64,000 nucleotides of DNA. It comes from Rhytidiadelphus loreus. Taxonomy: Eukaryota; Streptophyta; Bryopsida; Hypnales; Hylocomiaceae. Each line of letters opens with the position of its first letter. Position 1 is the first letter of the stretch. This document shows, in pieces, positions 21,654-50,759 of this stretch. The stretch spans positions 83,285,093 through 83,349,092 of the forward strand of contig OX344763.1 in NCBI GenBank assembly GCA_947034895.1, in the 5' to 3' direction. Below the pieces are notes generated by a model, which saw nothing but the letters and a program-made list of their open reading frames with translations, had not been told where the DNA came from and searched no databases. Made by a program: the position numbers and the translations under genes.

Positions 21654-23164
21654 TTGGAAGGAGAGATTTTCAATAAGCAATTCGGAGTGAAAGAAGGGTA
21701 CATCTTGGGAACGATGGTGAAGGCGGAATCTGGAGATGAGGTTGGTCCGGTTAACCTCCGGATTGTGGTTTTGGGAGTTCCCAAGAATCGGCAAGAACAC
21801 ACCCAGTTGGAGGAGGATTTGGTCCAGATCGGTTGTCTAGAGTTGTTGCAACAGCTCTGGAGCCTGAGAGATGAGGGGATGGTCCAAGAGTGGGTAGTAG
21901 AGCAGTCAAACAAGTAGAACCGGACTTTGAGAGCACTACCTCCCAATTGGACAACCAAAGTGTGGAGGACGGTCTACAATTTTCCAAGAGAGGCAGAGGG
22001 TTTGGCATCAAGGACGGACAAGTTTTTTAATGGTAAGTTCTCTCAACCACCAAATCCTAAGGACGGATATACAGGGGCAGACTGTGTAAAGTCTAGGGAC
22101 AGGAGAGTATTAGAATTCCTAGTCCCAATACTATATCCGAAACATCCAAACCAGATTACAGTAACTTTGGCCAACACCATCTTTGGTGCACTATCCGGGG
22201 ACCGAAAGGTTAGCTAGAGGATAGTAATTCAGGATCTGGTGAATAAAATGATAGCGGGTGTTGGGAAGTCCAAGCCTTCCGAGATCAATCCTTTTCTCTT
22301 TCATCTTTACCATTCCTTAGAGCTATTGAGGGATAAGGAGGGCATGGTGTATAAATCAGCTGTAGTTATGCTGAAGTATGACATTAGTCCGGAACCAGAA
22401 GGAGAGGAAGAGAGGGAATCAAGAAGGGAGACCTCAGAACGAGGAAAGAAGAGATCAGAGGAAGGGACCCCTGAATCCGAAAAGGAAAAGGAGACAATGG
22501 AGGAAAAGAGAGAAGAGATCCTCTTTGGCCAGAACGCCAGAAAGAGGATATAATGGAAAGGGTAATTGAGGATCTGGAGGAATACCGATCCTAGTTAGAA
22601 AAGGAGAGAGCAATGATTAGTAGGATCTGTAAAAAGATGGGGATTGTCAATGCGGAAGAGCTCTATAAGAGGATAGAAAGTCTCCTCCAATGGCTCCAAG
22701 ACGAAGAGAAGGAAAGATTGGAAGCCCGGATAGGAGAAATGGAGGATCGGGTCAAGGATCTCCAGTCACAACTGGAGCAAAAGACCATTGAGGCAAGAAA
22801 GGAAAGATGCCTCTCAACAGGATCTAATAATACCCTCAAGCAAATCCGTGGATTCATTAGTCATCCGGGCAATGTCTTAAACAAAGCCAAATTGTTCGAT
22901 GCAGAAGTCCATAAATTCAATCCTATAGTGGCAGCAAAAGTAGTGGGTGTGTTGGTTGAGTTTGGGGAGAAGATGGATAGGATCCTGTTCAAGATTCGAG
23001 AGGTCATGCAGGAAGCTGGTTATTATCCGGATCCGGAAACGGAAAAGGAAACTGACCAAGAGAAGGACGAGACCCCAACCAAAACTCCAGCAATGTCGCC
23101 CTCGTCGTTAGCAAAGCAGAAGGACAGGGACCCCACAACCACCAGGAACTTCTTCCCGACTTGA
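21654..23164 (+). pseudogene. Gypsy-associated coiled-coil ORF (plus copy)
   Basis: One frame runs from 21654 through TAG stops at 21915 and 22215 to about 22550, then shifts by one into the frame 22613-23164. Recognisable blocks are KVWRTVYNF, TDKFF, DRRVLEFLVPILYPKHPNQITVTLANTIFGAL, INPFLFHLYHSLELL, a highly charged linker, a coiled coil (ICKKMGIVNAEEL through LQSQLEQK) and AAKVVGVLVEFGEKMD. All reappear in the split minus-strand copy at 42426-43462 plus 24852-25029, so this is a real gene family. The capsid-like leading part is reminiscent of plant putative transposon protein domains, but I cannot name it. Confidence 0.55.
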
Positions 23165-25029: not shown

Positions 25030-25054
25030 TTAAAACACTATATTCATTAAAATG
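25030..25054 (+). repeat. Left terminal inverted repeat of element A
   Basis: 25 bp starting TTAAAACACTATATTC and ending TTAAAATG, exactly repeated in reverse complement at 42391-42415. The next bases (AGAG versus GGAG) are also nearly the same. Confidence 0.85.
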
Positions 25055-25356
25055 AGAGTTTTCCAAGGAAATGAGAGTCTTAGCAATCACAGAAATTCTA
25101 AACTTATAGGATAATTTCTCTCATGAAAATAGAAATGCAATCTAGTGACATACAAAACACGTAAATGATGGCAAAAATCACAATGACTTGAAAAGAATTC
25201 AAAAATATTAACGCATATCACGTATAAAAGAAGAAGAGTGCCACAACAAAGACGAAAAATGATATATATACGGCATATTGTGGACAAGTTTAATGTACAT
25301 ACTTCTACGCAATATGTATCCAAGACTACCAATCGGGATTCTACTACACTCTTCTG

Positions 25357-25995
25357 TCAAGAATTCGAGGTAGTCCTCAATTTCTCCATGGCCTTTAGAA
25401 TCTCAGGTCCCCGACTATAAGTTTTGTTAGATCCTCCCTGTTGGCGGAAATGCTCCCTCCGTTGCGCTTGCAAAGACCTTTGCTCCCAAGAATCCCAACT
25501 CCGACTAGAGCTCTGGGTAGTACATGATCGTCCATCATCTCTTCTTCTGAACCTCTTCACATGAGATGGTCCACTATGACGAGGGAGCGTGGGTGGAATA
25601 ACTGAGGCCTTCAGAACATCCTAACATGCATGAGTGGGAACCTGTAGATTCAACTCCGGCACAGACATTGGATAGTTGGCGTCTTCGTAGAGTTTTCTCT
25701 GTGTCAATTTTCTTGATGCAGACGTCAACTTAGGCGACCCATGACGGTCGTTAGAGCGCAACGGCGATGGTGAACAAGACACCGGCAAGCGCGGCCTTTG
25801 ATCAAGAGGACTATCCACGACCCCTTCTTCAATGGGCACCACAGAAAAGTCCATAGACGAGTTGACAGTGGGAGCAAAGCACAAAAAGTTCCCGGTACTA
25901 AGGATGACATATTGCCCGTAGTCCAAAATAGAGTCGGCCGACACATGGCATTGGAGGTGACCATGAGATGCAAGGGCCGTGGACGTGCTAGCCGT
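25357..25995 (-). pseudogene. Ser/Pro/Arg-rich ORF at the left end of element A
   Basis: The frame opens just after a plausible acceptor (TTGCAATCCAG at 25996) and runs 213 codons to TGA at 25357, with one TAG at 25621-25623 (in HAC-DVLKAS, where Gln fits). It is rich in Ser, Pro and Arg, with SPSPLRSNDRHGSPKL and KRFRRRDDGR; probably disordered and nucleic-acid-binding. It follows the HAD-like gene on the same strand and could be its last exon. No family recognised. Confidence 0.35.
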
Positions 25996-26149
25996 CTGGA
26001 TTGCAACAAGTGTAAATTAGTAATCCACATACCACCCATTCGCAGAGGAACAATGAGGTACAATGATTGCGAAAAGATACGTCTAGGTACAACAATGTAT
26101 CACACATCAGCTCGACCCGATCTAAACTACATATCTCTAAGCCTACCAC

Positions 26150-27313
26150 TAAGTAACACTAGCCGACCCACGAACTACTTCCAAGAGCCTGTCGTACTCC
26201 CGCCGCCCCCTTTCATCGCAGAGCATTCTACGACCAATCCTCCCTTGACCGCTCGACCGAAAAGACCTTAGCCCCTCGTTGCCGTTCACATGCAATCGTT
26301 TGAACTAGGGTAATAGTACATTCATGAGAAATGAGCCCTTGTCCCCATTTCCCCGATTTGACCATGAATCCGGAAGTATTACATTCTCCGGCTTGTTCAT
26401 GATGTGCTTTCGGGGGCTATCGTCCACTATAATGGTATTCTCGCAAGTAAACCACCCTCGGAACCCCGAGAGGAGCAAATCCATATTCTTAAGGAACAAA
26501 TCCTTCTGAGTCCCTGGTTCCTTATAGGACATCAATCTTCTGGCCCTATCCCTGACCTTAACAGTTTTGCAAGAGTCTTGTCCCAAAATATGAATGGGCA
26601 TGATTCCGTCACGGAATAGGTACTTGGAAACCTCATCAGTGGCGGATTTCTTCATGGAGCTCCACACTGAGATAAATGCAATCTTCTCTAATTCAATTAA
26701 GAATGTAGAGCAATTGGGCTAGACGTACACCGCCTTCAACCCCACAATCGCGGCAACAGTCGCAGAATGCGGCTCAGAGTAGTGGTTGAATTGTGCCACC
26801 GACCCCTTGGACTTCCAATCTTCGGCTACACATAAAATCCCATTGAGGTCCAAGACAACGTTGACCCACTTCTCCACCACCCCGGACCTCAATGGACGAT
26901 GGATGGTCTCAGAGGTTCCCTCAAGAGCTATGATAGGATCCAATTCCTGCTAGGAAACGGACGAATTGTGGAACCAGTTACAATCAAAATATTGGCTTAT
27001 TACGTCCAGGAGAAACAGACCATTCAAAAAATCAATGGTGAACAACAACATAATGCAATGCCGAAATATCCTAGGAGCAGATATAATTGTTCGAGAGTTA
27101 TCGTACCTATCTCTCCGTAGCACCCGATAAGTGATCCGCATCAACAAGTCTAGCAGGTGCAATACCCAAATCAAAGGGTTGGGCAATATGTTCATTGGAG
27201 CAGTTAGTGGGTGCAGAGATGTCATTGATGATCGGTGGGGCTTGCATACAAGTGTGAATGCAGGGAGATTGACAAATATCATTCACAATTGGAAGATTCA
27301 GAGGGCCTGCCAT
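26150..27313 (-). pseudogene. FCP1/NIF-type HAD phosphatase-like gene
   Basis: ATG at 27313. Exon 1 (27313-27107) ends in TAG immediately before a GTACGA donor, as expected if a CAG/GT exon end had mutated. A 160-bp intron ends in CTAGCAG, and exon 2 starts at 26946. Exon 2 carries VVLDLNGILCV (the HAD DxDG-type nucleophile motif, here DLNG), FISVWSSM (motif II region), ILGQ-SCKT, KDLFLKNMDLLL and NTIIVDDSPRKHIMN..NVILPDSW (the DD motif of FCP1-like phosphatases). The second aspartate of DxDx is Asn, so activity is doubtful. Other stops are TAG 26719 (VYV-PNC) and TAG 26305. These proteins dephosphorylate Ser residues of RNA polymerase II tails or similar substrates; a role in a transposon is unknown. 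Confidence 0.65.
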
Positions 27314-27520
27314 TGAACATAGAGTACATAATGGTACGTGAGAAAATCATATATTACATGCTCTTAAAATGAGTTTTAGGATACAAAATTGAGATCAAAA
27401 CATCTGAAGTCTAGGACCCACACCCCTTGAGCATGGTATATCTACAAAAATCTGCACCTGCCGCACAACCACTCAAATCAGCTCGATTCGAGCTAAAACT
27501 ACAAAACAATGGACGGGTGA

Positions 27521-30500
27521 TCATTGGGTACAACCTGCTGGTGGATCATCGACGGGTTGCACACCACTTCCGACTTCCACGTCAGATGCATCCAAGGTCA
27601 GGTTGTGCCCAATGGCAACTTCCGCTGACGATGACACCACTTCCAATCCACCAAGGGGCTCATCTAACGGAGAGTCAAGTGTAGCAACCGACGCCGATGG
27701 ATCATCCGTAGGAGGAAGAGGTGGAGATATAGCAGCCGACGCCGATGGATCACCTGATGGAGGACAAGGTGGAGACTGAGGTGCATCGATAGGTAAAGGA
27801 GGACGTTGGCTCAGCGGCACCGGATGGCTTGATGCTCCGCTGACGTTGGACGTAGTCGGATGTTCCTGAAGCAACAACTATGCTGACGACTCCGACGGCG
27901 CAATTGATGCTAGCGGTGAAATCACTTTCCCTGTCAATAGGGCCTGAAAGAAATTCCTGTTCGTCTGAGACTCGTTTTGCATCCACTGCTACGTATTCTT
28001 ATGCATCTGCATACTAAGTTCCCGCTGTTCGGCTTGTTCGGCTCGCAATGTCGCAATAGCGAGCTCAGTTCGCTTCTGCGACAACTCATTCTACTCCTGC
28101 ATTCTTGCGATGGTCTCGTTATTTCTCTGGTTCATATCCGCCATCTGCTGTACGACGCTTGCCATGGTATCTCGTTTCCTTCTCTTTTGCGCAGCCCTAG
28201 ATGGAGTCTGTGAAGAGGGCGGCAGCATCAACGAACCAGAGGATCCGGGGACATCGCCGAACATGCGACTTGTTGGCGTCAGCATATCATCCAGCCGCTC
28301 AACATCCATCAAATCAATGTCTTTTCCATCGTCAGCGTCGTCCGAGAATAACTCCTCAACATCGTCGACTACTGGAGTAGGGGGCCTCTTCAGATGAGTG
28401 CGAGGCGACTCCTGACTGGATCGCAATATACGTCGTGACGATGAAGGGGTCTGTGATCCTGGAGGAATGATGGAAGATTTCACAAGATATCCACTCTCCA
28501 AGAAATCGAACTTGTCTAAAGTCAAGGCCTTGGTACAGATATCTTGCCACCAGGGTTCGAGCTTTGATGGACTTGATGCGTAAATATCAACCGAACTCAT
28601 CTGCACAACCGAAAACGAAATGTAAGACGAAGGGTAGAATCATGTACCAAATCAGCTCGAGTCGAGCTGATCATACATACGAATGAACAACAATGATGAC
28701 AAGTCAATACAATCACCATGACAGAGTTGGTTTCGACCATTATTTCGAGAATAGTTCATACCATAGCAGTGCATGTAAATTTGCCACCTGCAAATCCAGA
28801 GAATACGCACTTGCCAGGATTGCAGAACTTCTTAATGAGCCATAAGTAAAATTCCATCCGTAATTATGTATTGTAAATATGGTACTCAAGCTCGTTGTAT
28901 GCCCGTGCCTTCATGTACCGAGCTGTTTCAGGACAGCCAAACTCTTCTGGAATTTCAACAGGATTCGTATTGCTTGTGCGTTGTAGAAACATGAGCAACA
29001 CTTTCTTCGGCGTCTTTGACACTAGAAGATTGCACAATCTATCGTGCTTGCCCACACTATACATTGCAAAGTCAGCAGTATACGAGCTCAAGACTTCGTT
29101 CGATTCTACGAAGCTAAGTATTTGAGCCTGCTCTTTTTCATTTGCGCAGATGAAGAGCCACGACGGAACTTCCTCGAATGTCGGTTTCTTTGCTTTGCAC
29201 AAAGATGTAATAACTTCGATGAAGAAATGATTATCGACTGTTGATTTCTCCTTCTTCTCAATCCCAGGCAAGTTCCTAAAATCAATCACACCGAGGGCCA
29301 TTCTCCTCGGTGTATCCGATACCCAAGCGTACTTCATCCAATCCGAGTGAGTATTCTTCTCGGTCTCGTACGTGCGATAGTATCCTGCCATCGTGGGCTT
29401 CACAAAGTTCTTCCTGTGCTCTAGGAAGACCTTGAAGAACTCATAGGCGTGCTCCGATAGTTTTGCATAGCTCTTGTTCTTCGATCTGACTTGCTTTGCT
29501 TGAGCAAAGTATGCCTCTCCAGGCCAGTCGAGAAGAACGTCCATGGTGGCTTTCGTAACGCACCAGTCTTTCTTGAACGCCTTCCAATTTTCAGTTATTA
29601 TTTCATTTCTGGCGTTGAGTAGACCGAGATCTGGATTTATTGTATGCAACTCTTTTTTGACTAAATGCTTGCGTTTTCGCCGCTCTGCCCACTCTTTTGT
29701 TGTATAGCAACTATCTAGGACCGATGAGATCGCCTTAATAGTCACCTTCGGATATGGCAGATTGCGCTTCCCACCACATTGGTTAAGAATATGCATTGCG
29801 AGCTTCCCAAGTTCATCATAACTTAAATTCCCGAGAAACTTAAAGAATTCTCTCGTCAACATACAGTTCTCGGGATTCCAATCTGTCCTTGCGTTGAACT
29901 GCTTCTCCGTGTCCGTGTTGATGAGCTCTCCATGCGCGGCATTTGTGATAACATCACTCCAGAGTTTATAGACGTCTTCTGGAGCTGTTATCAACTTTAA
30001 CTCATTAGTGAGTTTTAGCTTCTCCTCCTTGCCTTTCTTCTTGGAAATTTGTAAGCTCTTGTTGACGTCGATCAAGGAGAACCGAACATATACAGCCTTT
30101 TCAAACTCCTGCGAACAATAAGGACAGAAAGGAATCAGCAATTACATATCAACTCGAGTCAATCTGATTTGCATTCAAGGAGGATGTTTTTAATTCTACC
30201 AACTCAAGAAGAACTAAGGAAAGCAATTCAGTTCGAGTCATGCTCATATACATACATGGAATTTTGCTGCGTTACAAGTGTTTTCAACAGTCCACCTGGT
30301 GGCTATGACTGTCCCCACGGACTGAGCTTGCAAGGGATTTTTTGGACACCCCATCTTCATCCACATTGTGCGCGCGCCCAGTATGTTAGTTGCCCACGAC
30401 GGCTTAGCTGCGACGAAATGGTTGACCCGGTTGTAGTAGGCCGAGATATTTCGTAGTTTCTCCCCGTCGCTGGACCAAACAATGAAGTAGTTCCATATCC

Positions 30501-31625
30501 GGAATTGATCTTTGATGTCATCTGGAAATTCACTATTCTCAGAGACAATTTGTTTGCTCGCATCTACACTGTGTTGTCCATTTATTATGTAGAACTTTCT
30601 GTTCTTGATTTCATCCCAGCTAGTTGGCTTAACGTTGACGCCTACTAGCAAAACACATAGTGTTTGCTTTGACGACATGTCTGGCATGTTGACCAAGAAT
30701 GTTACCATATCCTCGACAAGTCGGTTCTCCTTCGATCGAATATTGAACCTGGCCGGAGCTCCAATAAGTTGTTCAATCGATATTTCCTTCTTGTCGTCCA
30801 CCTTGAAGACATATGCGTCCTCACAGGTCGTCCAGAAGCGCTTGTACGCTTCGCTCACAAGCTTTTAGTCTGGTTTCCTGTTTGTGGCTCAGAAGTGGGG
30901 GACATTCATCATTTCCTCTACATCTTTTTCGCGGTGGTGGCCTCTCTTGCACCAAGGATTTCCTCTTACCGCGACTAGAACCAGATGCTTGAGGAGCATT
31001 CCTGCGGGAGGCCTTACTACCACCTCCGCTCACTATGTTAATTGATGTTGACCACGGTTTATTCAGAGCTGTCTGCATTTCGAGCTTCCCCTTGAGAGTG
31101 TTAAAGTCATTGAATAGGGCTTGAATTTTGGAGCAGAGTCATTTTCCGTTGAGAGGGGTCTCGTCGCCGTTCTGATATTCCCTTCTGTCTATTTTTTTTT
31201 CGAGCTCTTTTATCTCGTCACGAAATGGAGTGGGCTCAAGGCTCTGAAGGAAGGGGGTCATGGAAAATGGAACAAGGAGAGAATTCACACAAATTGTAAA
31301 GTGGTACTGCTCTGCACTTGGGATCCCAAGTTTAGCAGTGACACACTTAATTTTTATTATTGGATGCGCGTCAACTTCAACGTCTTTGACTTTCTCCTCG
31401 AACGACAACTGAATGAAGACCTGGGCGTTCTTGAACTTGTAGGAGAAGATTATGAAATTTTTGAAAGGCACCATTGAAAGACTCCAGGATTCAACTCTTT
31501 CGGGTTCTTTAAATTCCCAGTATTCCCCTTCAATAAGGATTTCGTCCAGTCCATCGCATTCTTCGGAGAACTGGACTTCCGATTTCTGGAAGTACATGTT
31601 CAAGCTCTCAAGCTGGTCTTCCATC
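27521..31625 (-). pseudogene. ParB-like plus N4/N6-methyltransferase-like gene (element A)
   Basis: ATG at 31624, one base after an acceptor (ACATACAG). Exons: 31625-30256, 30108-28762 and 28600-27521; introns have clean GT..AG ends (donors GTATGT and GTATGA). The N-terminal 160 residues are unrecognised; then two basic clusters (RGKRK, PPPRKRCR) as nuclear signals; then a ParB/DGQHR-like domain with INGQHS (30568-30582) followed by WNYFIVW and YNRVNHF. A 400-residue helical region follows. After TAA 28864 the frame continues with LIKKFCNPGKCVFSGFAGGKF, which reads like the end of a beta-class N4/N6 methyltransferase: GD.V.D.FAGSG with the Asp lost. The tail is Pro/Gln-rich. Breaks are TGA 31139, a one-base insertion near 30869 and TAG 28089, about 27991 and 27878, all Gln-like. 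Confidence 0.55.
28651..28671. repeat. Perfect 21-bp palindrome in an intron
   Basis: AT + CAGCTCGAGTCGAGCTG + AT, one central base, inside the 28601-28761 intron of the ParB-MTase-like gene. Weaker relatives lie at 30148-30166 and 30229-30240 (intron 30109-30255), 27477-27497 (between genes) and 26106-26126 (half site only). Confidence 0.75.
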
Positions 31626-31663
31626 CTGTATGTTCAGTTACAAATAATTAGTGACAATTGTGA

Positions 31664-32034
31664 TTCAGCTCGACTCGAGCTGATCCGTTCGTTGTTAGCA
31701 TCTCTTAAATTACGTAAGGGTTGTACTTCATAATTTCATTATGAAGTGTATGGTTGTTTCGTCTGTACGTTGGACTTAGAATGTGTTGGTTAGCGGATCA
31801 GCTCGATTTGAGCTGATTCGCATGGTGAATGTTTTGGTATTTCTATTTGAAATCATTATGTTTTAGTGCATTAATATTTTTGAGAAAACTAATTCTGACT
31901 TGTTGCTACATGTGAGCTCGACTCGAGCTGATCTGCTTGGTTTAATTTGTTTATCTATTTCAGATTTGGTCATTAGTATAAAAGAAAATGTGAGTACTGA
32001 ATTGTCACAGTAGATCAGCTCGAATTGAGCTGAA
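31664..32034. repeat. Palindrome cluster upstream of the ParB-MTase-like gene
   Basis: Four copies (31664-31684, 31797-31817, 31912-31932, 32014-32034), spaced 133, 115 and 102 bp, of (A/T)TCAGCTCGANTTGAGCTGA-type sequence. Flanking bases extend the symmetry toward GC(A)..TGC. They lie immediately 5-prime of the acceptor before the start codon, in a likely leader intron or promoter. Possible binding sites for an element-encoded protein. Confidence 0.7.
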
Positions 32035-32149
32035 CTGCAATTACTGGTGGTGGTTTTTTGCTTGGGTTTTTCAGTGACTCTTCACATTTGAATATGAGTT
32101 TATGTGAGTTATGGAGTGACTCTTGCATTGTGTTTCTCTGTTTTAATTA

Positions 32150-32420
32150 GGGTTTCGGTTTTCAACCATAAACCCTAATCAATAAATTGTATACCCTAAT
32201 CGCTGAACCCCAAACCCTAATTGCTAAACCCTAAACCCTAAACCCAAAGTGAGAACCTAAACGGAGACCCTAAATGGCAAGCTGAACCTTGGACATTGAA
32301 CCCTAAGTCCAGTACCCGAAGTGAAAACCTATACATTTGTTGGAGAATGAGAATTCAAACTCACTTGCAAATTTCTGAAGTGATAATCGTAAACAATTCA
32401 GAAAAAAAGACCTAAACCCT
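32150..32420. repeat. Interstitial AAACCCT telomere-type motifs
   Basis: About a dozen imperfect ACCCTAA/AAACCCT words in both orientations, degenerate and short. They are the plant telomere unit but scattered, so not a telomere. Such motifs also occur in plant promoters. Confidence 0.6.
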
Positions 32421-33454
32421 AAACCTAAAAAGCCAGAATAGTAAACAATTCATAATAAAACCCCAAACAAAACAGAAAATATCAGCAAACAAACCAACAA
32501 CACAGAAAACAGGAAACCAGCAATGTACAAAGGATGTCACACACTCACACCTAAAGAACATGTACAAAGGATCTCACACACTCACACCTAACAAACTAGA
32601 GCTACACTCTAAACCCTAAGGAATCAAAAAATTCCAAAATTGTAGAAAACAGTCACGGCCAGCGCCCAGCAAATGAAACCAAGCGAGCAGCAACTGAAAT
32701 AGAATCCCAACGCCCAAGAATTGAAGGAAAAAGCCCAGCAAAACTAACCTTCCTGAAATGTTCCTACGAGCTCTTGAAGTTCGGCGAGCCTGAATCTCCA
32801 TTCCTGTGAGCTCCTGAAGTACGGCGAGCCTCAATCTCCGCCACAATCTCGCTCCGTGAAGTCGACAGCGTGGGCAAGCTCCTCGCAAGCTTGCAATCAA
32901 ACCCTGACGCCTCCAGCAGAAGCCGTGACCTCTTCAACCTCTCAAAACGTAACGCTAGCAGCAGAAGCCCAGAATCTCCTGAATCGCACAAACCAAACTG
33001 AGCAAAACGCAAGAAGCTGAAAGCTTGAATTCTTGAATTTTCAGCTTGAATTAATGAACTAGCACCCGAACCCTAAAACTAGCAAGCAAACTGTGAACCA
33101 TAAACCGAACACAACCAGGCACAATCATGAACACTAAAGCATAAACCCTCTTTAGCTTGAACTTGAGAGAGCAACACCGGAACCCTAAAACTAGCAAGCA
33201 CAATCGTGAACAGTAAAGCCAGAAACCTCAAACCAGCCTACTAAACCCAAAACCAACAAGAATCAGAAACCTCAAACCAACGAAGGTCTAAGCTTAAATT
33301 GTTGAATTTCTAGCTTGATCTTCAAACACCAACAGCGCAAACAAAAAACCAGCAGGTAAAATTTGTAACCCTAAACCGAAAACTAGTTGGGGGATTGATA
33401 GAAAGGACAGCCTAAACCTAAAACAAAGCATACCAAAAAAGCAACAAAGCATAC

Positions 33455-33988
33455 CCAAAACGAGAAAGAAATACAGCGACTCCTAAAAGGAACAAAAAAC
33501 AAAGAACAAGCGTCCCGAGTGCAACAAGAATCGGAAACCAGCAAGCGCAATCGTTCACCAGCCCAAAACGAGAAAGAAACACAACGACTCCTAAAAGGAA
33601 CAGAAAACGAAGAAGAAGCGGAATGAGTCGGAAACCAGCAAGAATCGGAAACCAGCAAGCACTATCGTTAACCAGCAAGTCCCCACCAACCAGCACCCTA
33701 AAGCGAAAATGCAACGCCAGAATCGCCACATGTTAACCAGCAAGTCCCCACCAGCCAACACCCTAAAGCGAAAATGCAACGCCAGAATCGCCACATGTTA
33801 ACCAGCAAGTCCCCACCAGCCAACACCCTAAAGCGAAAATGCAACGCCAGAATCGCCACATGTTAACCAGCAAGTCCCCACCAGCCAGCACCCTAAAGCA
33901 AAAATGAAACGCCAGAATCGCCACAATCTTGAACCAGCAAGTCCCCAACACCATCACCCGAAACCAAAAATGAAACGCCATCATTCCT
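33455..33988. repeat. Minisatellite: 107-bp duplication and 65-bp repeat
   Basis: A segment starting CCCAAAACGAGAAAGAAA occurs at 33455 and 33562. From 33670 a 65-bp unit (AACCAGCAAGTCCCCACC.. to ..CGCCACATGTT) repeats at 33670, 33735, 33800 and 33865, then fades by 33988. Long antisense ORFs here are a by-product of the periodicity. Confidence 0.75.
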
Positions 33989-34287
33989 GTAGCAAACCCT
34001 AAACCCAGTATCCAAGAAGCCCGACGTTGAAATTTTTTTATTCTTCCTTGGCTTGAACTTTACAAACCAACCAAGAGAACCTATGAACAAGAAGAAGGAA
34101 GAACCGAAATCGAATGTGAAGTAAACGTACCTCAGGATTGCTCGCACATGCTCGCACCGCCACCGCTAGGCCGCATCGCCAGCAGATCTCCGACAAAAGA
34201 AAATTGCGTGAAGGTAGGAAGTCCTCAGAAAAGGGACTTGGAAATTGCCTTGACAGTGCTGCAACAGACAAGAGAGAGAAGCAAAAT

Positions 34288-34346
34288 CCTACCCCGATTG
34301 TGCAGGCCCTACCTCGATTCTGCAAACCCTACCCCGATTCTGCAAA
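34288..34346. repeat. Three 20-bp units CCTACC(C/T)CGATT(C/G)TGCA
   Basis: Short tandem run of near-identical 20-mers within the non-coding middle of element A. A further CCTACTCCAATTCTGCAG-like unit lies at about 34460. Confidence 0.55.
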
Positions 34347-34499
34347 GATGGCCGGAAATTCTAACTTCCAAGAAATTGCAAGGTCGAAGCAAGGAAATCC
34401 AACGCAGGAGTGAAAACCAGGAAATTGCAAGGCAGAAGCAAAAACGTAGTGCGCGCCAAACCCTACTCCAATTCTGCAGGCCAAGGTGAACTGACCCCT

Positions 34500-36040
34500 T
34501 CTTGCGGGCAAACCCTGGAATTATTTAGTTTTGGCACAAAAATTTTAATTCATTTTTCCCCCAAGTTCATTAAGGTGAGTCAAGAGTAAGGTAGTGTGCT
34601 CATAAACCGTCACTTTCAGGGCTGATTTGCCTTTTCCACAGGTTTCTAGGGACAAAATGATTCTTAGCTCATTCTTTAGAGAAAGAAAAGTAGATGCGGA
34701 AGCCAATATAAGTAGTTTCATATTTATCCAAGCATTTATAAATTAGTTCTAAATTTTCAAAGATATGGGTCATAGGCACCTATTTATGACCATTGGTGTC
34801 CCAAAATCCATCCTCTTGTGACTTATAAAGAAATGTGCAAAATCACAGCCAATGATTGGTTCTTAAACCCTTAAAAAAAATCTTCTTGAATTCATTAATT
34901 GAGTAAAGAGGTCCATTCAAGGTTTACTTTACATCCATTCTACAGCTACCTACAGGACGATCTCAAGAACAGGGGCGGATTTTGAACTACCTACCTTATA
35001 TCCTAAAACAATGGGCTTCTCTTTTACATACACTCCTGGTAAGCCCAAGCGAGGGGGTCCATCCACCTTGATCCATTTTGCAAATGTAAACATACCTGGA
35101 CCCCGTTAGTGTTGCAAGGAACACACGCTATAGGGACTTATTCTATTTATAACCGCATGGGCCTTTTTATTGATACCAAACCAAATTATTATGTATAAAT
35201 ACTTTTATAAAACGTCATATGATTCTAAAATTATTTTGAGTAAGACAAACTTGAACACCCTAAACCAATTTGAACACCCTAAACCCTTAAACCAACCCTA
35301 AACTATACAAATCATTTAGTGATTTATTGGATTAAAAATTGCAAAGGTACTAAATGTTATTGAATTGCATTTTACATTTAATTGCACGTTTGAAATTATA
35401 CAAGAATTCTAGGAAGTACAATTCAAAAGAGTTAGACTCAACGTTCTCTTCGAATGGCTTATGACCATGATTGGAATTATTGACCATTGGAATTATTCTT
35501 AACTTCCAGTGTTCTGTACCATGATTGCTCTAATTCTATATAACAAGAGAAGTTCATTGGAGGCCGAAGTACAGTGTAGAATTTCCAAATTTGTCCAACG
35601 TATCATCGAATTGCACTTATGTTCTGTACATAAACATTCTTTGACATTAATTAATAGGAAAGGGCCATATATTATATAAAATAATAATGACTTTATATCT
35701 TTAATAACAAGATAGTGTAAAATACTAAAAATTTAAATCGAACCGTAGAATCTTACACCACGGGATTATATATACATATGTATACAAAATTAATCTCATA
35801 AGATTCAACAGACTATGTATGTTGGAAAACAATTACATCTCAAGAAAACTAAAAAGATTACTCAATTTTAATTTTAAAACTAAATTTGCATGCATTCAAT
35901 CAAAGTAATAAAAAGAAGGCACAATTCTATTTCTAAATTTCAAAAAAGCGTAAAGTCCAATTAGTTAGTACACATATGGTAGAAAATGAAAGACAGCACC
36001 TTGCCCTATACTTAAATAATGATAAATTGCAACTTGTACA
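34500..36040. other. AT-rich non-coding middle of element A
   Basis: No coding frame that I can support. It contains scattered ACCCTAA words (about 35.26-35.30 kb). The neighbouring 36.6-37.98 kb stretch is similar, with only short unrecognised ORFs. This may be cargo DNA or an older nested insertion. Confidence 0.4.
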
Positions 36041-36595
36041 TCATTTTAAGTTACATGGCTTTATAATTTTTTGGGCATTAAAGTACCTGGCATGGTCCTT
36101 GCCCCAATATTTGATTTCACGACCAAGGTCATTCAGTTCAGTTTCACATACAAAATCATTGAAAGTGACCACCCAAACGTGCATATTCTTTTGAATGCAT
36201 GAGTTTAGGAATAAATGCAACTTGCACAAACATGTTTTACCATTTTCTTTACGTGAATTTTCGTGACATTATATTTTTTTGGACAGTCATTAAAGTACAG
36301 GGCAAGACCGTTGCCCCAATTTTTAGTTTCACGTACAAAATCATTGAAAGTGACCACCCAAACGTGCATATTCTTTTGAATGCATGAGTTTAGGAATAAA
36401 TGCAACTTGCACAAACATGTTTTACCACTTTCTTTACGTGAATTTTCGTGACATTATATTTTTTTGGATAGTCATTAAAGTACAGGGCAAGACCGTTGCC
36501 CCAATTTTTAGTTTCACGTACAAAATCATTGAAAGTGGGAGACTACGAAGTGCATATTTTTGGGAGTCCTTGAGTAGGTTGGGTGCTTAAGTTTT
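36041..36595. repeat. 185-bp unit in three tandem copies
   Basis: Copies at about 36041-36225 (diverged), 36226-36410 and 36411-36595 share GTGACCACCCAAACGTGC, GAATGCATGAGTTTAGG and the phrase ACCGTTGCCCCAATTTTTAG. The second and third copies are nearly identical over most of their length, then diverge after GAAAGTG. Recent tandem duplication. Confidence 0.75.
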
Positions 36596-37988
36596 TGTTT
36601 GATAAGTTCGTTGGTTTATATTTTTACATTAGATTAGAGGAATATAATCAATAATGAAAACACTTGTTTCTTGGCAGAGATGCTTTGTCATTAGAATTAG
36701 CTACATATGAAATAAGTAGTGAATCTTCTTCTCTATCTATGATCAATATTTGTGGAATTTCAAGTGCAAGAAATCATTGCATAAAGAGAAGCAAAAATGA
36801 AATGGCTTCCCAATTGAGAGCATTTGCATTCATTTGTTTCAAAACATTTGTCACTCAAATTCTAATTTTTATTAAACCCGTAAATCGTGTTTTTATTGGA
36901 TTATGCAAGTGTTTTGATGATTCCTAGAGCCAATCCAAAACAATGAGAAACCCTACCTGTAAACCCTAAACCCTATACCCTAATCCAACAACTACTAAAA
37001 GTTACTGTGAATCCTTCATTATCAATTTATTTATGGAAGATTTAAATTGCCTTTTTGGAGGGGGGAACCCCGAAAGTTACTCATTTTTTTAAAACTAGAC
37101 ACAATGATATTCCAACTTACTAAAAATTGAAAAGGTACTCCTAGGCAACTGCTATATTACTTTTAATACATGGAATGTGAAGATCCCGTGATATTGACGT
37201 TGTAGATAACCAAGAGGCCATGGACCCGAAGTAGAGCCACGATAGTTAGGAAAGTCAACATTTTCTTTTAAAAGGAATCTCATCAACCTTGCTGACACCA
37301 CAATTTTCGTGGGGTCAACTACTGTATCAAACATTCTGTGTCATTTCTTGGGGTAAAGGTGGGCAGGCCCATGGTATTCAGGGATTCCCGACTTTCAGAA
37401 ATTCTCATTTCAAAACATCCTGAAGATGGCGCTCTTTTCTTCCCACCATACATTGAGGTGTACACCGTCACCCCAATTCCAAACCTCATTTCCCACTTCT
37501 TCTTCAATTGTATGAACCTCTCTGCACATTTCTTCTTTCCGGATTGTATTCAGCATGTAATGATTAGTTTTGTGCATGTTTGGGGAGGCTAGAAGAGGTC
37601 TTTAGGAGGATGTTGCTTTCTGTACCATTACATTCTGAGAGGAAGTGTTCTACCGCACTTCGATTACTGTAAGTCAGTCGCAATTCCTCAGCCACTGCAG
37701 TGCTCTACGTTCATAGAATTCGCAGACTTATTTTTGAGATTATTGTTTGTTGATTTTGTATTCATATTCGCAAACTTATTTTTGAGATTTTTGTTCGTTG
37801 GTTCTGTATACTTCTATTCAATCTGTGCATTTCAAAAACGATAATGATGTTGCATTCAGGGTACAAGTCATTTTGATTTCCAAGCACATTTCTCCACAAT
37901 CGAATAATTGCAGTGTGAACTGAACTCCGAGAAGTGCGCCGCAAACCCCAGGTACTATTAATAGACTCATGTTCTAATGGGCCAGCAT

Positions 37989-38659
37989 ATCAGCTCAATT
38001 CGAGTTGATGTGCAGTTTATTCATATGTGAATCCCATGCGGAAGGAATAACAAAGGTCGAGAATAATAATCTATCTCGCTAATCAGCTCGAATCGAGCTG
38101 ATTTACAAATCTTAATATATTCTTTACATTGTCAAGACATTATGTATCATGTCAATCTATTTATGATTCATCTGAACTTAAGAATCATTGTGTGAATATT
38201 GATCGACTATGTACAATGAACCTGAATACATTGAACTTGAATACATTAATTTATTATATACAATGAACTTGAATGCGAAGGTGTAAATCAGCTCGAGTCG
38301 AGTTGATACGCAAATCAATGCAAATCGTCTCTAATAATATTGAAGGTTAGTGAGACTGATATATTGTCCTTGCATATCAGCTCGACTCGAGCTGATATGC
38401 AGTATGACATGAAAGTGGGTGGAATATTCCATACTTTAATCTGTCTGATATGCCTTTATATTTACATTACGTTTCCACGTGTTTTGATTGCATATCTACT
38501 CACCTTTTGCTTAAATATCAAATCATGAACTCATATGTAATTGAGTAAGATGTTCTGGAATATGATAAGGAGTCAACTTCAATATTTTTGTTTCTAATTT
38601 CATAGGAAGACTTGATAATTTGGGAGATCTACAAATCAGCTCGACTCGAGCTGATTTGT
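37989..38659. repeat. Palindrome cluster upstream of the RNase H-like gene
   Basis: Copies start at 37989, 38082, 38287, 38376 and 38635. Two are perfect over 29 bp with one central base: 38372-38400 (arms GCATATCAGCTCGA) and 38631-38659 (arms ACAAATCAGCTCGA). All end before the acceptor at 38770, i.e. in the promoter or leader intron of the plus-strand gene. Same family as 31664-32034, on the other side of the element. Confidence 0.8.
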
Positions 38660-38775
38660 CTCTCGATTGTGGCCTGTTTTATTGAAACTGAATTCTTTAT
38701 AGTACTATTTTGTAAATTTGCATATGAATTAAGTTCTTATCATTATTCATTCTGACATTGTAATATACAGACATC

Positions 38776-41613
38776 ATGAATTCCACGGCTGAGTATTTCA
38801 GTGACATGGACTTCTTGGACGATGAGGTACAAGTGCCTCAGGTAGCAGTTGTGGATGTTCCCGAATGCGAAGGTCTTCCTCGTCGTCTGTGGAACACAAA
38901 GTGTGTAACTCTATACAACGTGGAAGGAGTACTTGTTGGTGAAGGTACCTGTCATAGCGTGAACTCAGACTTGGTGCTTGGAGCGAATGGTCCGCTTGGG
39001 GATGAGAACGTGGCTGTTCATCTTTGTAAATCATTTTCTGAGGCTGACATCCCCGAAGAGAAAGTTTACTCATTGATAGTCTGGCCAATCACATTAGTGC
39101 ACTACCGAGGAGCAAGTCTGCATGACCATGAAGCCCGGGATAATTATAATCGTTTGCAAGCGAGTCTTTTGAATCCACCATCGAGAACATCTGTTCGACC
39201 GTATGCAAGTGACATTCGGAACCCACCTCGTGAGACATGCATAAAAACGAGAGGCCTACTCACTCAAGACTCTATCAATATAGTTTCATGCAAGGTTTGC
39301 TGTAGCAGAAATTGCGTGCAGCTGTTTCCGAGAGAGAAAATTCGAGCCTTTCGGGAACGCATGTACCAGAATTCTACATTCAAGCACAGAGCTTTCATGA
39401 AGACTGAGGTGCATAGACAAATGCATCGTGACTTTACAGGGAAAAGGATGGTGACTATTGATGGGATAGATGTTTGCATGCGAGCGTGGATGTTTATTTC
39501 TGGGGTCCCAGAGTCTACCTTCTACCGCTACCAAGCATATAAGAAGGACAGTCGTGAAGCAACGGTTCATGGCAATACTGGGCAAGTGAAGACTAGGATG
39601 CATACTCAACAAGCTACAACTACATTGAAGTGCATTCTTGAGCAAGAGGCGGATCACATGCCACATCGTACTCAGACTCTCAAGTCAGGAGACAAAGTCG
39701 TCTCCATGATTCTCCCGACAACTTTTCAATGGAAAGGACAGATGGCAAAAATTAACGAAACCAATGTTGCTTTTGGACTGAAAGAGGTCTCTTCATCAAA
39801 CTTGAGCAAGATTAGATCTTCCAGGTTCCCAGAGTACGAAGTAAAGAAGCCTGGAGATAATTTTGTCCGTTGTGCGAAGTGTGACAAACTACGAGAGCTT
39901 ATTAAGGGTACTTTATCTGGATCACAAACTTGTTTGAAGTGGAAGATGTTACTTGATAAACATCTGGCTATAGCTTGAGCACATAGGGAGTTGTACTATG
40001 CAAATCGGTATTGATCCCATAATTTTCCACACGAGTGTTTGACAATTATGCATGACAAGATGGATCATGCCAAAACAACTTCTCCGGTCTTCTCTCATAA
40101 GAGTAAAGAGTTGGATAGCCTAATGAAGTTGCCTTTGTCTATGACTGGCATGATTGCACATGGTCATGCTGATGTGCGGTATGCACATTACGGCTTAGAC
40201 CTTTTCCCCCATGATTCAAATTACACCATTGGTTCAATGGCGAAGTTGTTGCGGGACCTCGAACAACCACCAAAGTCTTCTTCTCGGCAGTTGTTCATGA
40301 ATTCGAGGTCTGCCTCTTTGTTTGATGCGGTCTTGAAAGGCGCAAAGATGTGTGAAGCCTCACTACCCCCACCAACGGACACATTGGTTCTTGCAACACC
40401 ATTGCCACCCATTCTCAATGTGCAAATGGATAACGCTACTAAGGACAACAAAAACAGATTCGTTTTTGGTTTTTGGTCTCTACTTGTGGCAAACAAAATC
40501 TTTCGTGAAGTTTATGTAAATTTTATGATTGTTGGCCACACACATGATGACATTGATGCGTTGTTTGGAAGATGGAGCATGCTATTGAAGAAGGAGAGTT
40601 TTCCAACAATCCCTACTCTCATGAAGTCCTTCATGGATGTGGAATCCATTCCCACTATCCCTCACCTTATAGAAGAGGTGCCAGATTTCAAGGGATTTAT
40701 TGAAGGATCATTTCTTGATGGTGATGACAGGCTCATTGGACACACGAAGCCACAACAAGTCAAGTTCTACCTAGATTTAAGTGGATGTCCAGTCATGAAG
40801 TACAAATTGTTGTGCACTGACGTAGAATGGCTAGGGGAAGAAGGTAGAGGCATTAAGTTGTGGAAAGAAGATGCAGGAGGGCAAAGTTTGTGGCCTTGTG
40901 GGGCACCTTTGCCAATTCCATAGAGGGCAATGAGAGGCATGGAGGACATTCTGAAAGGGATATCTAGATTTGTGAGATATTGGCAAAATTTGTACGATTC
41001 AAATGTAAGTGGAGAGTATCGAAGACGGTATGAGCATTTGATACACTATTGGCATGGTGTGAAGGAAGCATTGCTAGAACCAGTAGATCCATCCTTGGTT
41101 TTGAAGGATGGTTTTTGGCCGACTACTCGTGTTGAAGCAACTCTTGCTGACGAATTAAATGAAGATGGTGAGGTTCGCGAAGAGTTCGGGGAAGATGACG
41201 CCTACGTCGGGCCTTTACGAGGTCGCCTAGAACCATCCTTTAGGGTCGCTCGAGATCTCTTCGAAGGCTACTTTGTTGCAATTTGACCCGCAGATGGTGA
41301 TACTCGACCAGTTTGGTTTGCAAGGGCTTTGTCTAACCCTTTTTGTAATCCAGAGAAACCAAATTGTGTGCTCATTCAATACTTTCGTCCAACATCCCGA
41401 AATGAGGATGTTCAGAACAACTACATAGGATGGGATAGTGAAAGAGGTTTGCGTTGGAAGGTCGATGAAGCTGAACCACCGGTTTGGGAGGAAACAAACG
41501 CCTTGATGATAGCATGGAAGTCTCAAATCAGAAGAGATACTGTGCAATGCATGATTAAGATTCCAGTGGCTCAAATTGAAGTCATCAACCAAAGTCTTGC
41601 ATCATACACATGA
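38776..41613 (+). pseudogene. RNase H-like (DUF7869-type) protein, transposase candidate
   Basis: ATG at 38776, six bases after an acceptor (AATATACAG). One frame holds 946 codons with only four stops: TGA 39976 and 40012, TAG 40921 and TGA 41284; the TGAs sit where Arg (CGA) and the TAG where Gln (CAG) would fit. A Cys-rich stretch (CKVCCSRNC, residues about 170-180) precedes a helical region with a CAKC pair near residue 370. After LTIMHDKMDHAKT comes the core: VQMDNATKDNKNRFVFGFWSLL and VGHTHDDIDALFGR (40425-40570), the spaced acidic/His pattern of the DUF7869 RNase H-like domain found in TE-like proteins of many eukaryotes. A basic C-terminal domain with FARALS and VLIQYFRP follows. As the only transposase-like gene within the inverted repeats it is the best candidate for moving element A. 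Confidence 0.55.
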
Positions 41614-42079
41614 TATTTGAAGTTGTATATGAATTGATGATGTGAATTTGGTTTAATTATGATTTTTCCAACTTCTTCATTCATATAACAGATTTGTTTT
41701 TATATATTTATGTGGTGTAGGTTTCATTTGATTTTTTACTAATTTAATTTTTGTTGCTATATAGATGTTTTGGAGTGTAATTAATGTTTTTAGATGACAA
41801 TGAAATGTTCATACCATATCAATATACTTCCTATTATATTGTCGTGTTTCGTTTATCATAGTTTTTCAATTTGTTTTTTGTTTTTTGTATCATTGAGTAT
41901 ATTTCATTTGAAATTATAGTAGTAATTATTACAAAAAAAAGTGGAGTGGACATATCCACTTTTTATTTTGATAATGTGTAAAGTACTTGTTACATTTTGG
42001 GTAGGGGTTGGTTGGTCGTTACGACTTTCCTGCCTACAAAGCTCACTTAGCAGCACCAAGTCATGTATTTCTGTCATGC

Positions 42080-42165
42080 GTTCATACGAATTCAATAGGA
42101 ATCGAACCCAGACCGCGTGGATGAGATAAATAACCCCTTACAACCAACCACAGAGCTCATGACTT
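42080..42165 (-). other. tRNA-like sequence (possible SINE head)
   Basis: On the minus strand AGCTCTGTGGTTGG (A-box-like) is followed at typical distance by GGTTCGATTCC (42108-42098), an exact Pol III B box. The rest does not fold into a clear cloverleaf. A 12-bp inverted pair CACCAAGTCATG / CATGACTTGGTG (42055-42066 and 42159-42170) brackets it. More likely a SINE fragment than a tRNA gene. Confidence 0.4.
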
Positions 42166-42390
42166 GGTGTCTAGCATAGGACCTAATCTTTACTTATATG
42201 AATTTGAAGATTAGTATTACACAGAACAAAATCAATTGTACATATATCTGACTATCAAAACTCTCATTTTAATGGAAACTAGACTTTAAAACTAGTAGAT
42301 TTTGTGTTTATGAATGCATATTGGCTAGAATTAAAACTCAATTGTTAACGTCTAAATGGACTACTTCATTTTGAGAGGGTCCAATCCTCC

Positions 42391-42415
42391 CATTTTAATG
42401 AATATAGTGTTTTAA
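42391..42415 (-). repeat. Right terminal inverted repeat of element A
   Basis: Reverse complement of 25030-25054 with no mismatch. An additional subterminal copy of the inner part (AAAACTCTCATTTTAATG, 42257-42274) matches 25045-25062 in inverse orientation. Confidence 0.85.
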
Positions 42416-46752: not shown

Positions 46753-49700
46753 CTAAATATAACTTAGTATTCCACTGAGAAGAAATGCCTTCACTTCAAG
46801 AAAGCTGAAGCTCGCAGCATGAATAAAGGCATCAGAGTCACACTGTAGATTGCAGATGACTGTAAAAACAAAGTAGAGATGTTTGCAATTTGCCCAGGTT
46901 CCACGCTTCCCCAAGCACTTCAATTTCATCTCCTTGAAATTAGGGCAGGTACAATCGGGAAATGTCGAAATGGTGAGCATATACTTCTCTGTCCGAGGCT
47001 CCACACTGGATATGAAGGAAATTATGCAACCAAATCCTGGATGGGGGACCATGGTTACCCTTTCTATGCGTGCATTTAAAGTCAACGACGAAGCACAGTT
47101 GTTCTGATGCTTAACGGTTGGAGCCTTTGGGTTTCGTCTAATAACATTCCCAGCTTGAGTTTTCGGATACACATCTGGATTAGGTGGAACAAGATAGGCA
47201 TGTACTAATTTGATTCCTCTTTCTCCACCAAAAAGTCTACGCGGTGAAATAACTTGTTGTTGTGGAAGCTAGAAACCGGCCGCCTCAAGCGATAAAATCT
47301 CGGCTTTTGATAGTTTGGTATCCATTTGAACGGGCCAAATAGACGGAACAGATGGTACAGATAATACCCACTTCCATCGATATCCTTTCACGCAACGTTC
47401 GATGTCGTCATTGCAAAAAAAGAATTGCATACGATCATTACAATTTTTTCTATAATTCACCATCATACCTATATATGTTGGCGCTGCTGTAGGTTGATTG
47501 TTTTGAACTATTTGGGCAGTACACTTCTTCCTTGTAATTGCTTGGTCGGCAAAGCATGCCTTTGCGGACGTTTTGGGTAATTTGGCAATATGCCATTGGA
47601 TTTCGTCACACATGCTCTCCTGGATACATGACACGTGAGTAGACTAGTGAGTACATTGAAGTTCCAAATTTTGATCATTTCCCATGACATGCTGCATTTC
47701 CACATCCACGCTTGGAGAGTCGTCTTCCCTAATGGGATTCAGAGGAGCTGCACTTGTTGACACTCTTGAGGATCTAGTCTGAATGCGGGGATGCGAAAAA
47801 TTTACTTTATCTGGCCTTTGAGAATCCTGCTCGCATCCTAGTGGCATTTCTACCTTGCTCTTGTAAGAACCGAAGACTTCCTCACCTTCAAGTTGAGGCT
47901 CCCTATTCACGAACTCCTCAACTTTAGGAATGCTTGAAATAGCTTCCGCCAAGGCCTTAGGATTCCCAGATCATTCTGCTGATCTTTGTGCAACACGAAG
48001 CATTAGTTCTTCCTTCCCTGGACCCGTTCCAGCTTGATTACCCTTTAGATATTGATAATACCTCACCATCTGCATGAAAGCTCGAACAAAATCATCTACA
48101 GTGGCAATGTACAAATTGGTTCCTCGATTGCCGGATTGCTGAAGCCATTTATTGTGTACTATCTCCGCAAGGTTGCAAGACGGCATCTCCGCAAGCTCGT
48201 TTTCATTTAGATCTTGAATAATCAATATCAAATATTGACATAAGATGTTGGAACAAAAATCATCCTCAAAGCATTAACAATGACAAACAATCAGTGACGG
48301 ACTGGAATAGAGATGCAGACTACTAGCCACTACTTCGAAGACATTGTGAGAACATGAAGTCTCAGAAGTCCATAATGAGTTTCTAGTGTAAGGCCCATTC
48401 GGTATCGGCTACGCATTTCGGAAGCACCAATGCATGCATACATTGCTCGTTACTAAACAGTCGAAGCACATTGACAATAAATAAAACCACAGGAATTCTA
48501 TAAGTAGCGAAGAAATAATACATTGGGTACTTTAAGATGAATAAGCTTAAAACCGGCCAAGATTGAAGAAATATTTCAAATGAAAGTGATAAGACTTGAG
48601 AACTTATGAGTTGCAGAAAGCCGCCCCATTGGCGATAACAAAAATGCCAAAATGACAGCTATAGGTCTAATCGACGTTTTCCTTCTTCACAAGTGGCACT
48701 TGAGGACAACCACCACACTCTAATGGCAAGGTACCTCAATTCAGATTCATCCGGAGAAGTGGCGTTCTTGTATTGCTTGCATAGCAATCGATGCTAATCT
48801 TGCAAGTCTCCTCGGATGTCAGCCTTCGTATGCTTTTCCATCGATTGTGTCCAATGGAAGAGGCAAGTTCTTTCACGGTTTTCCATTGCCTCGCTACTAT
48901 CTCCCGATCCATAGATGGTCCTCACAGCATTCTAATTTGCTTGCGCACTATCAGCCATAAATCCCTTGAATTGGATGTTGACCACACCGTGTTGCTCTAG
49001 AATTGAATTCAAATTCCTCCAGAACAGAATTTGGGTTGACGTGTCCTCGGATTGCATGTCACAGATTGTGATTGTCATCACGCGGCAATACATAGAATCA
49101 TACACGTGGCATGCCATTGTCGTCCACCCTTTTACCCTTTTCACGTGATCGAACATCATCCATGAGTCTCAAAGATCTCCATCATTTTGCATACGCTTCA
49201 CTAAGTCCACTCCACTTCCAAGACCCACTTCAGACATTTTGAAAAGAAAAACTTTATCTGACTTTATTCCTTGACTTGGAAATTTGCTCTCCTGAATGAA
49301 AGCCCACGTGTTGGAACCCCTCAACTTTGTAATACTATCAATGACACCAAATCTCCTCAGACATTTGAACGATGTAACCTCGTTCCGAATACTTGGAGAG
49401 CTAAAGTACTTGCACTTGTCCAAAACGGGAACTAGGTCAACGAAGTCAAGCTGCTTTGGATGTACCCCATCTTGGTTGAGTAGTAGTTCGCCTAACAGTT
49501 CTTTTGTAGCCTCAAGCACAATAGAAGAATTTGTTGCAGTCGGGGTTCTCTCCATCTGTTCACCAATTAGGACTCGAGTTCTATCCTTCAAGTCTCGGAG
49601 TTCACCATCCTTAACTGGGTGTTTGTGAACTCCAAGGTGTACGAACGCCCGAGTCATTCCTAGATTTCCTAGGACATAGTATGCTTTCACAGCACACATG

Positions 49701-50692: not shown

Positions 50693-50759
50693 CCCAACTG
50701 TGCAAGTAAGTTGGATGACCGTGACATCCAGGTAGAATATGAAGAAGAAAGTATACAAA

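What the first reader, a model, noticed from the sequence alone, without database searches (positions are those of the whole stretch)
25030..42415. A 17.4-kb DNA transposon whose removal repairs the gene it split
Perfect 25-bp inverted repeats at 25030-25054 and 42391-42415, a 9-bp duplication (GTGCATCTC / GTGCTATCTC), and an independent test: joining 42426 to 25029 on the minus strand with one target copy gives a continuous frame that aligns with the related ORF at 22930-23010 (KVV..LV(D/E)F..). Boundaries are therefore supported three ways. The cargo (ParB-like/methyltransferase-like, HAD phosphatase-like, RNase H-like) is not that of a standard plant superfamily that I know.
Basis: partly seen in the sequence, partly recalled or inferred. 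Interest (0 to 1): 0.92.

Follow-up and report, generated by a model that had tools for sequence, protein, structure and literature searches.

The report
Giant plant transposon with palindrome code
A very large jumping gene in a moss-like plant genome carries, next to its two genes, repeated mirror-symmetric DNA tags whose spelling changes together from one family of the jumping gene to the next, which suggests that it makes a protein that recognises its own copies.

Summary
The transposon is real, but other copies in the same 407-Mb genome move each edge 4 bp inwards (25034-42411) and show a 4-bp target duplication (TTAA here; exact in 10 of 13 other copies), not 9 bp.

It encodes a DUF7869 transposase (broken here, open in another copy) and, divergently, a protein with a ParB-like region, a beta-class DNA-methyltransferase-like fold that seems to lack catalytic motifs, and apparently a NIF phosphatase-like end. 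A 21.5-kb Ectocarpus Sola1 element with a ParB-methyltransferase gene is in print (PMC12477816), so the kind is known.

New, as far as my searches show: 14 palindromic sites, none in exons, upstream of both genes and in introns. The core occurs 659 times genome-wide; its reversed control, 0. Related elements carry symmetric variants in one common frame; four types track the transposase tree, and three beta-type elements have matching sites at both genes. A 474-bp derivative keeps only ends plus palindromes. I propose self-recognition, probably anti-silencing, analogous to Arabidopsis VANC. Binding is inferred, not shown.

The parts
25034..42411 (.). whole element, 17,378 bp
   Evidence: edges common to other copies
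25034..25058 (+). left terminal inverted repeat, 24 of 25 paired with the right one, first 21 perfect
42387..42411 (-). right terminal inverted repeat
25030..25033 (.). target-site duplication TTAA, left
42412..42415 (.). target-site duplication TTAA, right
38776..41610 (+). transposase gene (DUF7869, PF25273), one exon, broken in this copy by in-frame stops; 949-codon open frame in another copy
30959..31624 (-). accessory gene, first exon region: N-terminal domain
   Evidence: collinear with P. patens P0173
30247..30921 (-). accessory gene, ParB-like domain (FYIINGQHSVDAS)
28763..30117 (-). accessory gene, helical region plus beta-class methyltransferase-like domain without canonical DPPY
28091..28639 (-). 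accessory gene, next exon (end of methyltransferase-like domain, then disordered region)
   Evidence: similar to P0202/P0203
26308..26949 (-). NIF/FCP1 phosphatase-like region, probably the 3' exons of the same gene (P. patens gene model P0202 runs into it)
31665..32033 (.). four palindromic sites TCAGCTCGANTCGAGCTGA (0-1 mismatch) upstream of the accessory gene
37990..38654 (.). five palindromic sites (0-2 mismatches) upstream of the transposase gene
30149..30246 (.). two decayed palindromic sites in the presumed intron between the ParB-like and methyltransferase-like exons
28652..28670 (.). perfect palindromic site in the next presumed intron
27478..27496 (.). palindromic site (1 mismatch), outside the exons as I drew them
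26107..26125 (.). palindromic site (3 mismatches), beyond the 3' end of the accessory gene

Best explanation
It is a giant cut-and-paste DNA transposon, most likely of Sola type (TIR, 4-bp target duplication, three conserved aspartates in the transposase). Shown by sequence: two divergent genes, transposase and a ParB-like/methyltransferase-like/NIF-like protein; a palindromic DNA site repeated upstream of both genes and between exons of the accessory gene; nearly one site type per element, changing between element clades while its frame stays the same; a short gene-less derivative that keeps the ends and the sites. Inferred: the element's own ParB/methyltransferase-like protein binds these palindromes as a symmetric dimer and so recognises its own family. 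Most likely result: it keeps the element's two promoters, and gene-less derivatives, open against host silencing (an anti-silencing factor, as VANC is for Arabidopsis VANDALs, by another kind of protein). The methyltransferase-like part is probably a DNA-holding pseudoenzyme rather than an active methylase.
Confidence: 0.55

Rival explanations
1. The palindromes are transposition enhancers: the ParB-like protein, or the transposase, binds them to bring the two far ends together, or to load transposase, during mobilisation.
For: The gene-less 474-bp derivative keeps the ends and three palindromes and little else; ParB proteins are known to bridge DNA (recalled).
Against: In the eight full copies read no site is nearer than 1 kb to the left end or about 3.7 kb to the right end; sites sit before the genes and between exons, which a role at the ends does not need.
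Confidence: 0.2
2. The palindromes are operators of an autoregulatory circuit: a transposon-coded repressor (or activator) acts on the two promoters, limiting copy number; nothing to do with host silencing.
For: Clusters before both genes in the eight full alpha copies and in the three beta elements read at both genes.
Against: Sites also lie between exons and in a gene-less derivative, and one array holds 24 core-like sites in 2 kb, more than an operator needs.
Confidence: 0.15
3. The accessory protein is an active adenine methylase that marks GANTC in the palindrome and so tags its own DNA with 6mA.
For: Fold is that of CcrM and M.BceJIV; the alpha core contains GANTC; published authors propose such marking for the algal protein. 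Two of 24 sequences (P0180, P0181) keep a Glu at the motif I position.
Against: The strand that should carry DPPY ends D-[FL]-R, with D and R invariant in 24 of 24 sequences, and the motif I acid is absent in 22 of 24 (by eye); the gamma and delta sites printed have no GANTC and the commonest beta site has none.
Confidence: 0.07
4. The palindromes are ordinary host transcription-factor sites captured by the element.
For: Position before genes; plant factors bind palindromes (recalled).
Against: Of the 50 listed places of 659, 39 are within 15 kb of a listed transposase or accessory gene and 8 are in gene-less derivatives; the type changes element clade by clade, at both genes at once in the elements read, which a fixed host factor would not drive.
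Confidence: 0.05

Closest known systems
Sola1-1_Ec32, 21.5-kb Sola1 element of the brown alga Ectocarpus (PMC12477816, passages read)
   Same: Giant Sola-type element; opposite-strand gene coding a ParB-like plus DNA-methyltransferase protein of 1104 aa; authors cite green and red algal cases and suggest binding and modifying its own sequence
   Different: No palindromic sites described in the passages read; moss-like host; methyltransferase-like domain here seems inactive; NIF-like end here
VANC / VANDAL anti-silencing system of Arabidopsis (PMC5735166, passages read)
   Same: Short motifs repeated in noncoding parts (upstream, introns) of the TE, tandem growth, co-divergence of motif and factor, an unrelated TE with the motif responds
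   Different: VANDALs are Mutator-like (recalled), motif YAGTATTAY is not a palindrome, VANC is another kind of protein; binding and demethylation were shown there, here only inferred
Bacterial ParB-parS and the ParB-related anti-silencer VirB (starts of abstracts seen in the listing; the rest recalled)
   Same: ParB-like fold with cognate sites; VirB counters silencing near promoters
   Different: Eukaryotic transposon gene, fused to a methyltransferase-like fold, CTP motif apparently not kept
Beta-class adenine methyltransferases CcrM / M.BceJIV
   Different: Catalytic DPPY not seen in 24 of 24, motif I acid not seen in 22 of 24 sequences

Membership tests
Sola superfamily of DNA transposons | 4-bp target-site duplication (recalled from Bao et al. 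2009, not held) | tested here: met
   10 of 13 other copies plus the window copy and one derivative
Sola superfamily of DNA transposons | DDD-type transposase (recalled) | tested here: inconclusive
   three conserved Asp (D420, D545, D587), but catalytic role and third residue not tested (E627, 119 of 120, is also conserved)
Sola superfamily of DNA transposons | transposase sequence related to Sola1, Sola2 or Sola3 | not testable with these tools
   no Sola reference sequences available; Pfam gives only DUF7869
   duplications are 4 bp
ParB family | ParB/Srx fold | tested here: inconclusive
ParB family | palindromic cognate sites bound by the protein | tested here: inconclusive
   sites present and co-diverging; binding not testable
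ParB family | CTP-binding arginine motif (recalled) | tested here: inconclusive
   INGQHSVxAS in place of it by eye
Beta-class DNA methyltransferase | fold | tested here: met
Beta-class DNA methyltransferase | catalytic motif IV (D/N/S)PP(Y/F/W) | tested here: not met
   D-[FL]-R at the end of the first strand of the domain in 24 of 24 sequences, (placed by secondary structure, an inference)
VANC-type anti-silencing system | motif arrays in noncoding parts of the TE, co-diverging between TE clades | tested here: met
VANC-type anti-silencing system | a TE-coded factor that binds the motifs | not testable with these tools
   candidate protein only
VANC-type anti-silencing system | loss of DNA methylation and derepression by the factor | not testable with these tools
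   needs methylome and expression data

The most novel reading that the evidence does not exclude
A prokaryote-derived ParB/pseudo-methyltransferase protein has become, in giant plant transposons, a self-recognition factor with a family-specific palindromic 'password': each element clade has its own symmetric site, placed before both genes and between exons, retained by gene-less derivatives, and rewritten in concert when the clade splits. It would be a second, independently evolved sequence-specific anti-silencing system in plants, beside VANC, built on ParB.
Probability: 0.4. Interest if true: 0.88.

Novelty: new variant of a known kind. Interest (0 to 1): 0.72.

Why it matters
Published authors could only suggest that ParB-methyltransferase proteins of giant transposons bind and mark their own element. 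Here are concrete candidate sites, four distinct types, and a gene-less derivative as a natural reporter, so the idea becomes directly testable. If true, it shows a bacterial chromosome-segregation fold turned into a eukaryotic transposon's way of telling self from non-self, and offers sequence-specific tools for opening silenced chromatin.

Tried and rejected
Rejected: 9-bp duplication. GANTC as the common mark: in the alpha core, not in the gamma and delta sites printed nor in the commonest beta site; GANTC in the whole element is 84 against 63.8 expected from base composition, not convincing. Palindrome as terminal transposase site: none near the ends. Single sites compensating base by base inside the alpha family: not seen (3 symmetric against 124 one-sided). 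A sequence-only search of PDB with the accessory profile gave nothing of weight (best E 0.13, an arginine methyltransferase motif I stretch).

Led nowhere: one scan of viral contigs with six peptide patterns found nothing; one scan of genome contigs found one locus, L001, a 4.3-kb contig filed under a cyanobacterial MAG, most likely plant contamination; no paper of the library names DUF7869; Bao 2009 and Petroll 2025 are not held. The ten literature searches listed nothing that, by title and start of abstract, describes these sites; I read passages of three papers only (PMC12477816, PMC4455052, PMC5735166), so novelty goes no further than that. A full-protein alignment A2 was made and not folded. 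Two further possible element pairs on C4 were not fetched.

Not answered: the genome search for the empty site and for further copies of the 474-bp derivative.

Full report
What is there. The window lies on an 85-Mb contig of a 407-Mb, 489-contig assembly. Homologues of the cargo are found in Physcomitrium patens, so the source is most likely a moss; it is not named. Comparing with other copies moves both edges 4 bp inwards: matches to the left 500 bp start most often at query base 5 (21 of 41) and matches to the right 500 bp end most often at 496 (17 of 40). Of 13 other copies whose ends I paired by hand from those lists and fetched, 10 have exact 4-bp duplications of ten different sequences and 3 do not; the window copy has TTAA. 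The element is therefore 25034-42411 and the 9-bp duplication is a mistake. With one TTAA kept, the flanks give an open frame through the junction, and the alignment to the related ORF at 22613-23164 runs across it (30.8 bits against 27.3 under the 9-bp model); this support is modest, for a stop lies upstream in either case.

Genes. On the plus strand, 38776-41610 is one long exon related to DUF7869 proteins (4.7e-43; 590 relatives at E 0.001). Three aspartates are strongly conserved. The window copy has four stops in it by alignment; one of eight full copies has an open frame of 949 codons. The genome search scored 133 of 1533 candidate places. On the minus strand, from 31624 down to about 26308, lies a gene collinear with P. 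patens proteins of 716-1232 aa. Its parts: an N-terminal domain of uncertain kind, a ParB-like domain (leaning, not firm), a helical stretch, a beta-class methyltransferase-like fold, a disordered stretch, and a NIF/FCP1-like phosphatase region, into which the P. patens gene model P0202 runs. At the strand end where the methyltransferases have DPPY, these proteins have D-[FL]-R, with D and R the same in 24 of 24 sequences, and the motif I acid is missing in 22 of 24 (Glu in P0180 and P0181); I infer a pseudoenzyme. The two genes are a unit: 50 of 99 listed accessory genes have a listed transposase in divergent order within 25 kb, 5 in another order, 0.73 expected at random positions.

The palindromes. 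Thirteen copies of TCAGCTCGANTCGAGCTGA with at most 3 mismatches (14 by a core scan) occur in the window, each inside the element, none in 100 shuffles. None of the 14 lies in an exon as I drew the exons, although these are 41% of the element. They sit in a cluster before the accessory gene, a cluster before the transposase gene, and between exons. The eight full copies read have 13 or 14 of them at corresponding places (by eye; further hits of the same scan in four of the copies belong to another tandem repeat). The exact core is present at 659 places in the genome, the reversed pattern at 0. Only the first 50 places are listed, on C1: 39 lie within 15 kb of a listed transposase or accessory gene. 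Eight more lie at five loci that are copies of a 474-bp element: its ends are 93-94% identical to those of the big element over 44-48 bp, the copy read in full has a 4-bp duplication ACAA, and inside are three palindromes and no coding match. The other three belong to a repeat that I did not identify.

A family-specific code. Upstream regions of 16 hand-picked diverged transposases (80-87% identical to the window domain), one from L050 and seven of the eight full copies were scanned (the eighth, C3_64.07, dropped out because its domain match is split). The 24 of 24 hold palindromes in one frame, GCAnnTYAG-N11-CTRAnnTGC (2 to 27 each, 0.08-0.34 in mononucleotide shuffles). The inner bases fall into types: alpha AGCTCGANTCGAGCT, beta AGCGCNNNNNGCGCT, gamma AGGTTGNNCNAACCT, delta AGGTCGNNNCGACCT. 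On a tree of the transposase domains the types need 3 changes, the least possible; shuffled labels need 10.6 on average and never so few in 200. Limits: alpha is not one side of a branch; two delta labels rest on one site each, gamma rows also score as delta, and one alpha row has two beta hits. In beta elements the accessory gene was read in three cases, and these three have 6 or 7 beta sites before the first exon, one just after the ParB-like exon, and no site of another type. The exact beta 21-mer occurs 125 times, control 0 (100 listed). Of 29 listed clusters, 14 have a listed transposase within 5 kb downstream, 8 more a listed divergent accessory gene within 20 kb, 7 neither (both gene lists are truncated). 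Outer bases of alpha sites pooled from nine loci pair symmetrically beyond shuffles at offsets 8, 10, 12 and 14, weakly at 11, not clearly at 13 and 15-18. Inside the alpha family single sites mostly decay on one side (124 one-sided, 3 symmetric departures). L001, from another source, with a transposase 55% identical, has the alpha core with another outer part.

How it most likely works. The stretches before both genes, between exons, and gene-less derivatives share one site type, and the type changes with the clade. This is what is expected if a factor coded by the element recognises the site. Odd-length palindromes with a free central base point to a symmetric dimer. The ParB/methyltransferase-like protein is the natural candidate: two DNA-handling folds, coded beside the sites. 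The closest worked-out case is VANC, which binds motifs in noncoding parts of its own TE, lifts DNA methylation there, and co-diverges with the motif (PMC5735166, passages). VirB, related to ParB, is called an anti-silencer (starts of two abstracts in the listing). I therefore favour anti-silencing by self-recognition; a transposition enhancer and a simple autoregulatory operator are the main rivals. Binding, the identity of the binder, and the effect on silencing are not shown.

Known or new. The gene pair is known in kind: Ectocarpus Sola1-1_Ec32 is a 21.5-kb element with an opposite-strand gene for a 1104-aa ParB-like plus methyltransferase protein, and its authors cite green and red algal cases and suggest that such proteins bind and modify their own transposon (PMC12477816, passages). 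What I did not find in print, within the searches named under Tried and rejected, is the palindromic site, its co-divergence and its retention in a gene-less derivative. Hence: new variant of a known kind.

Noticed in passing
G000 contig C3: 71 of 132 listed transposase hits (one further hit, on C443, left out) lie on C3, 21% of the genome, 66 of them beyond 38 Mb; perhaps a sex chromosome or a large non-recombining region (a guess).
   Followed up: partly
L051:2322-2795: 474-bp gene-less derivative with the big element's ends, 4-bp duplication ACAA and three long palindromes; copies at L058, L059, L063, L064.
   Followed up: partly
L056, L057, L060: Three alpha sites flanked by a shared sequence (CATTTGTTT...) in a repeat that I did not identify; each lies 20-30 kb from a listed diverged transposase.
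   Followed up: no
L067 (C1:76791400-76793400): Array of about 28 tandem 57-bp units, most with a beta palindrome, upstream of a transposase; the kind of tandem growth described for VANC motifs.
   Followed up: no
window 54997-55503: A second ORF with a ParB-like look (FFVCNGNHRRIAWMNRI) outside the element; no Pfam match.
   Followed up: no
window 49169-50758: Two minus-strand ORFs of 176 and 346 aa without Pfam match, possibly another mobile element.
   Followed up: no
window 14812-15723: Reverse transcriptase and RNase H domains of a retroelement.
   Followed up: no
window 52557-54030, 33602-33990 and 36137-36537: Tandem repeats of about 150-160, 65 and 185 bp, the last two inside the element; the 185-bp repeat seems to vary in copy number between element copies.
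   Followed up: no
L001: A contig filed as 'uncultured Synechococcales cyanobacterium' carries a 947-codon open frame of this DUF7869 transposase family, most likely contamination.
   Followed up: partly
window 32160-32250: Short telomere-like AAACCCTAA runs inside the element.
   Followed up: no
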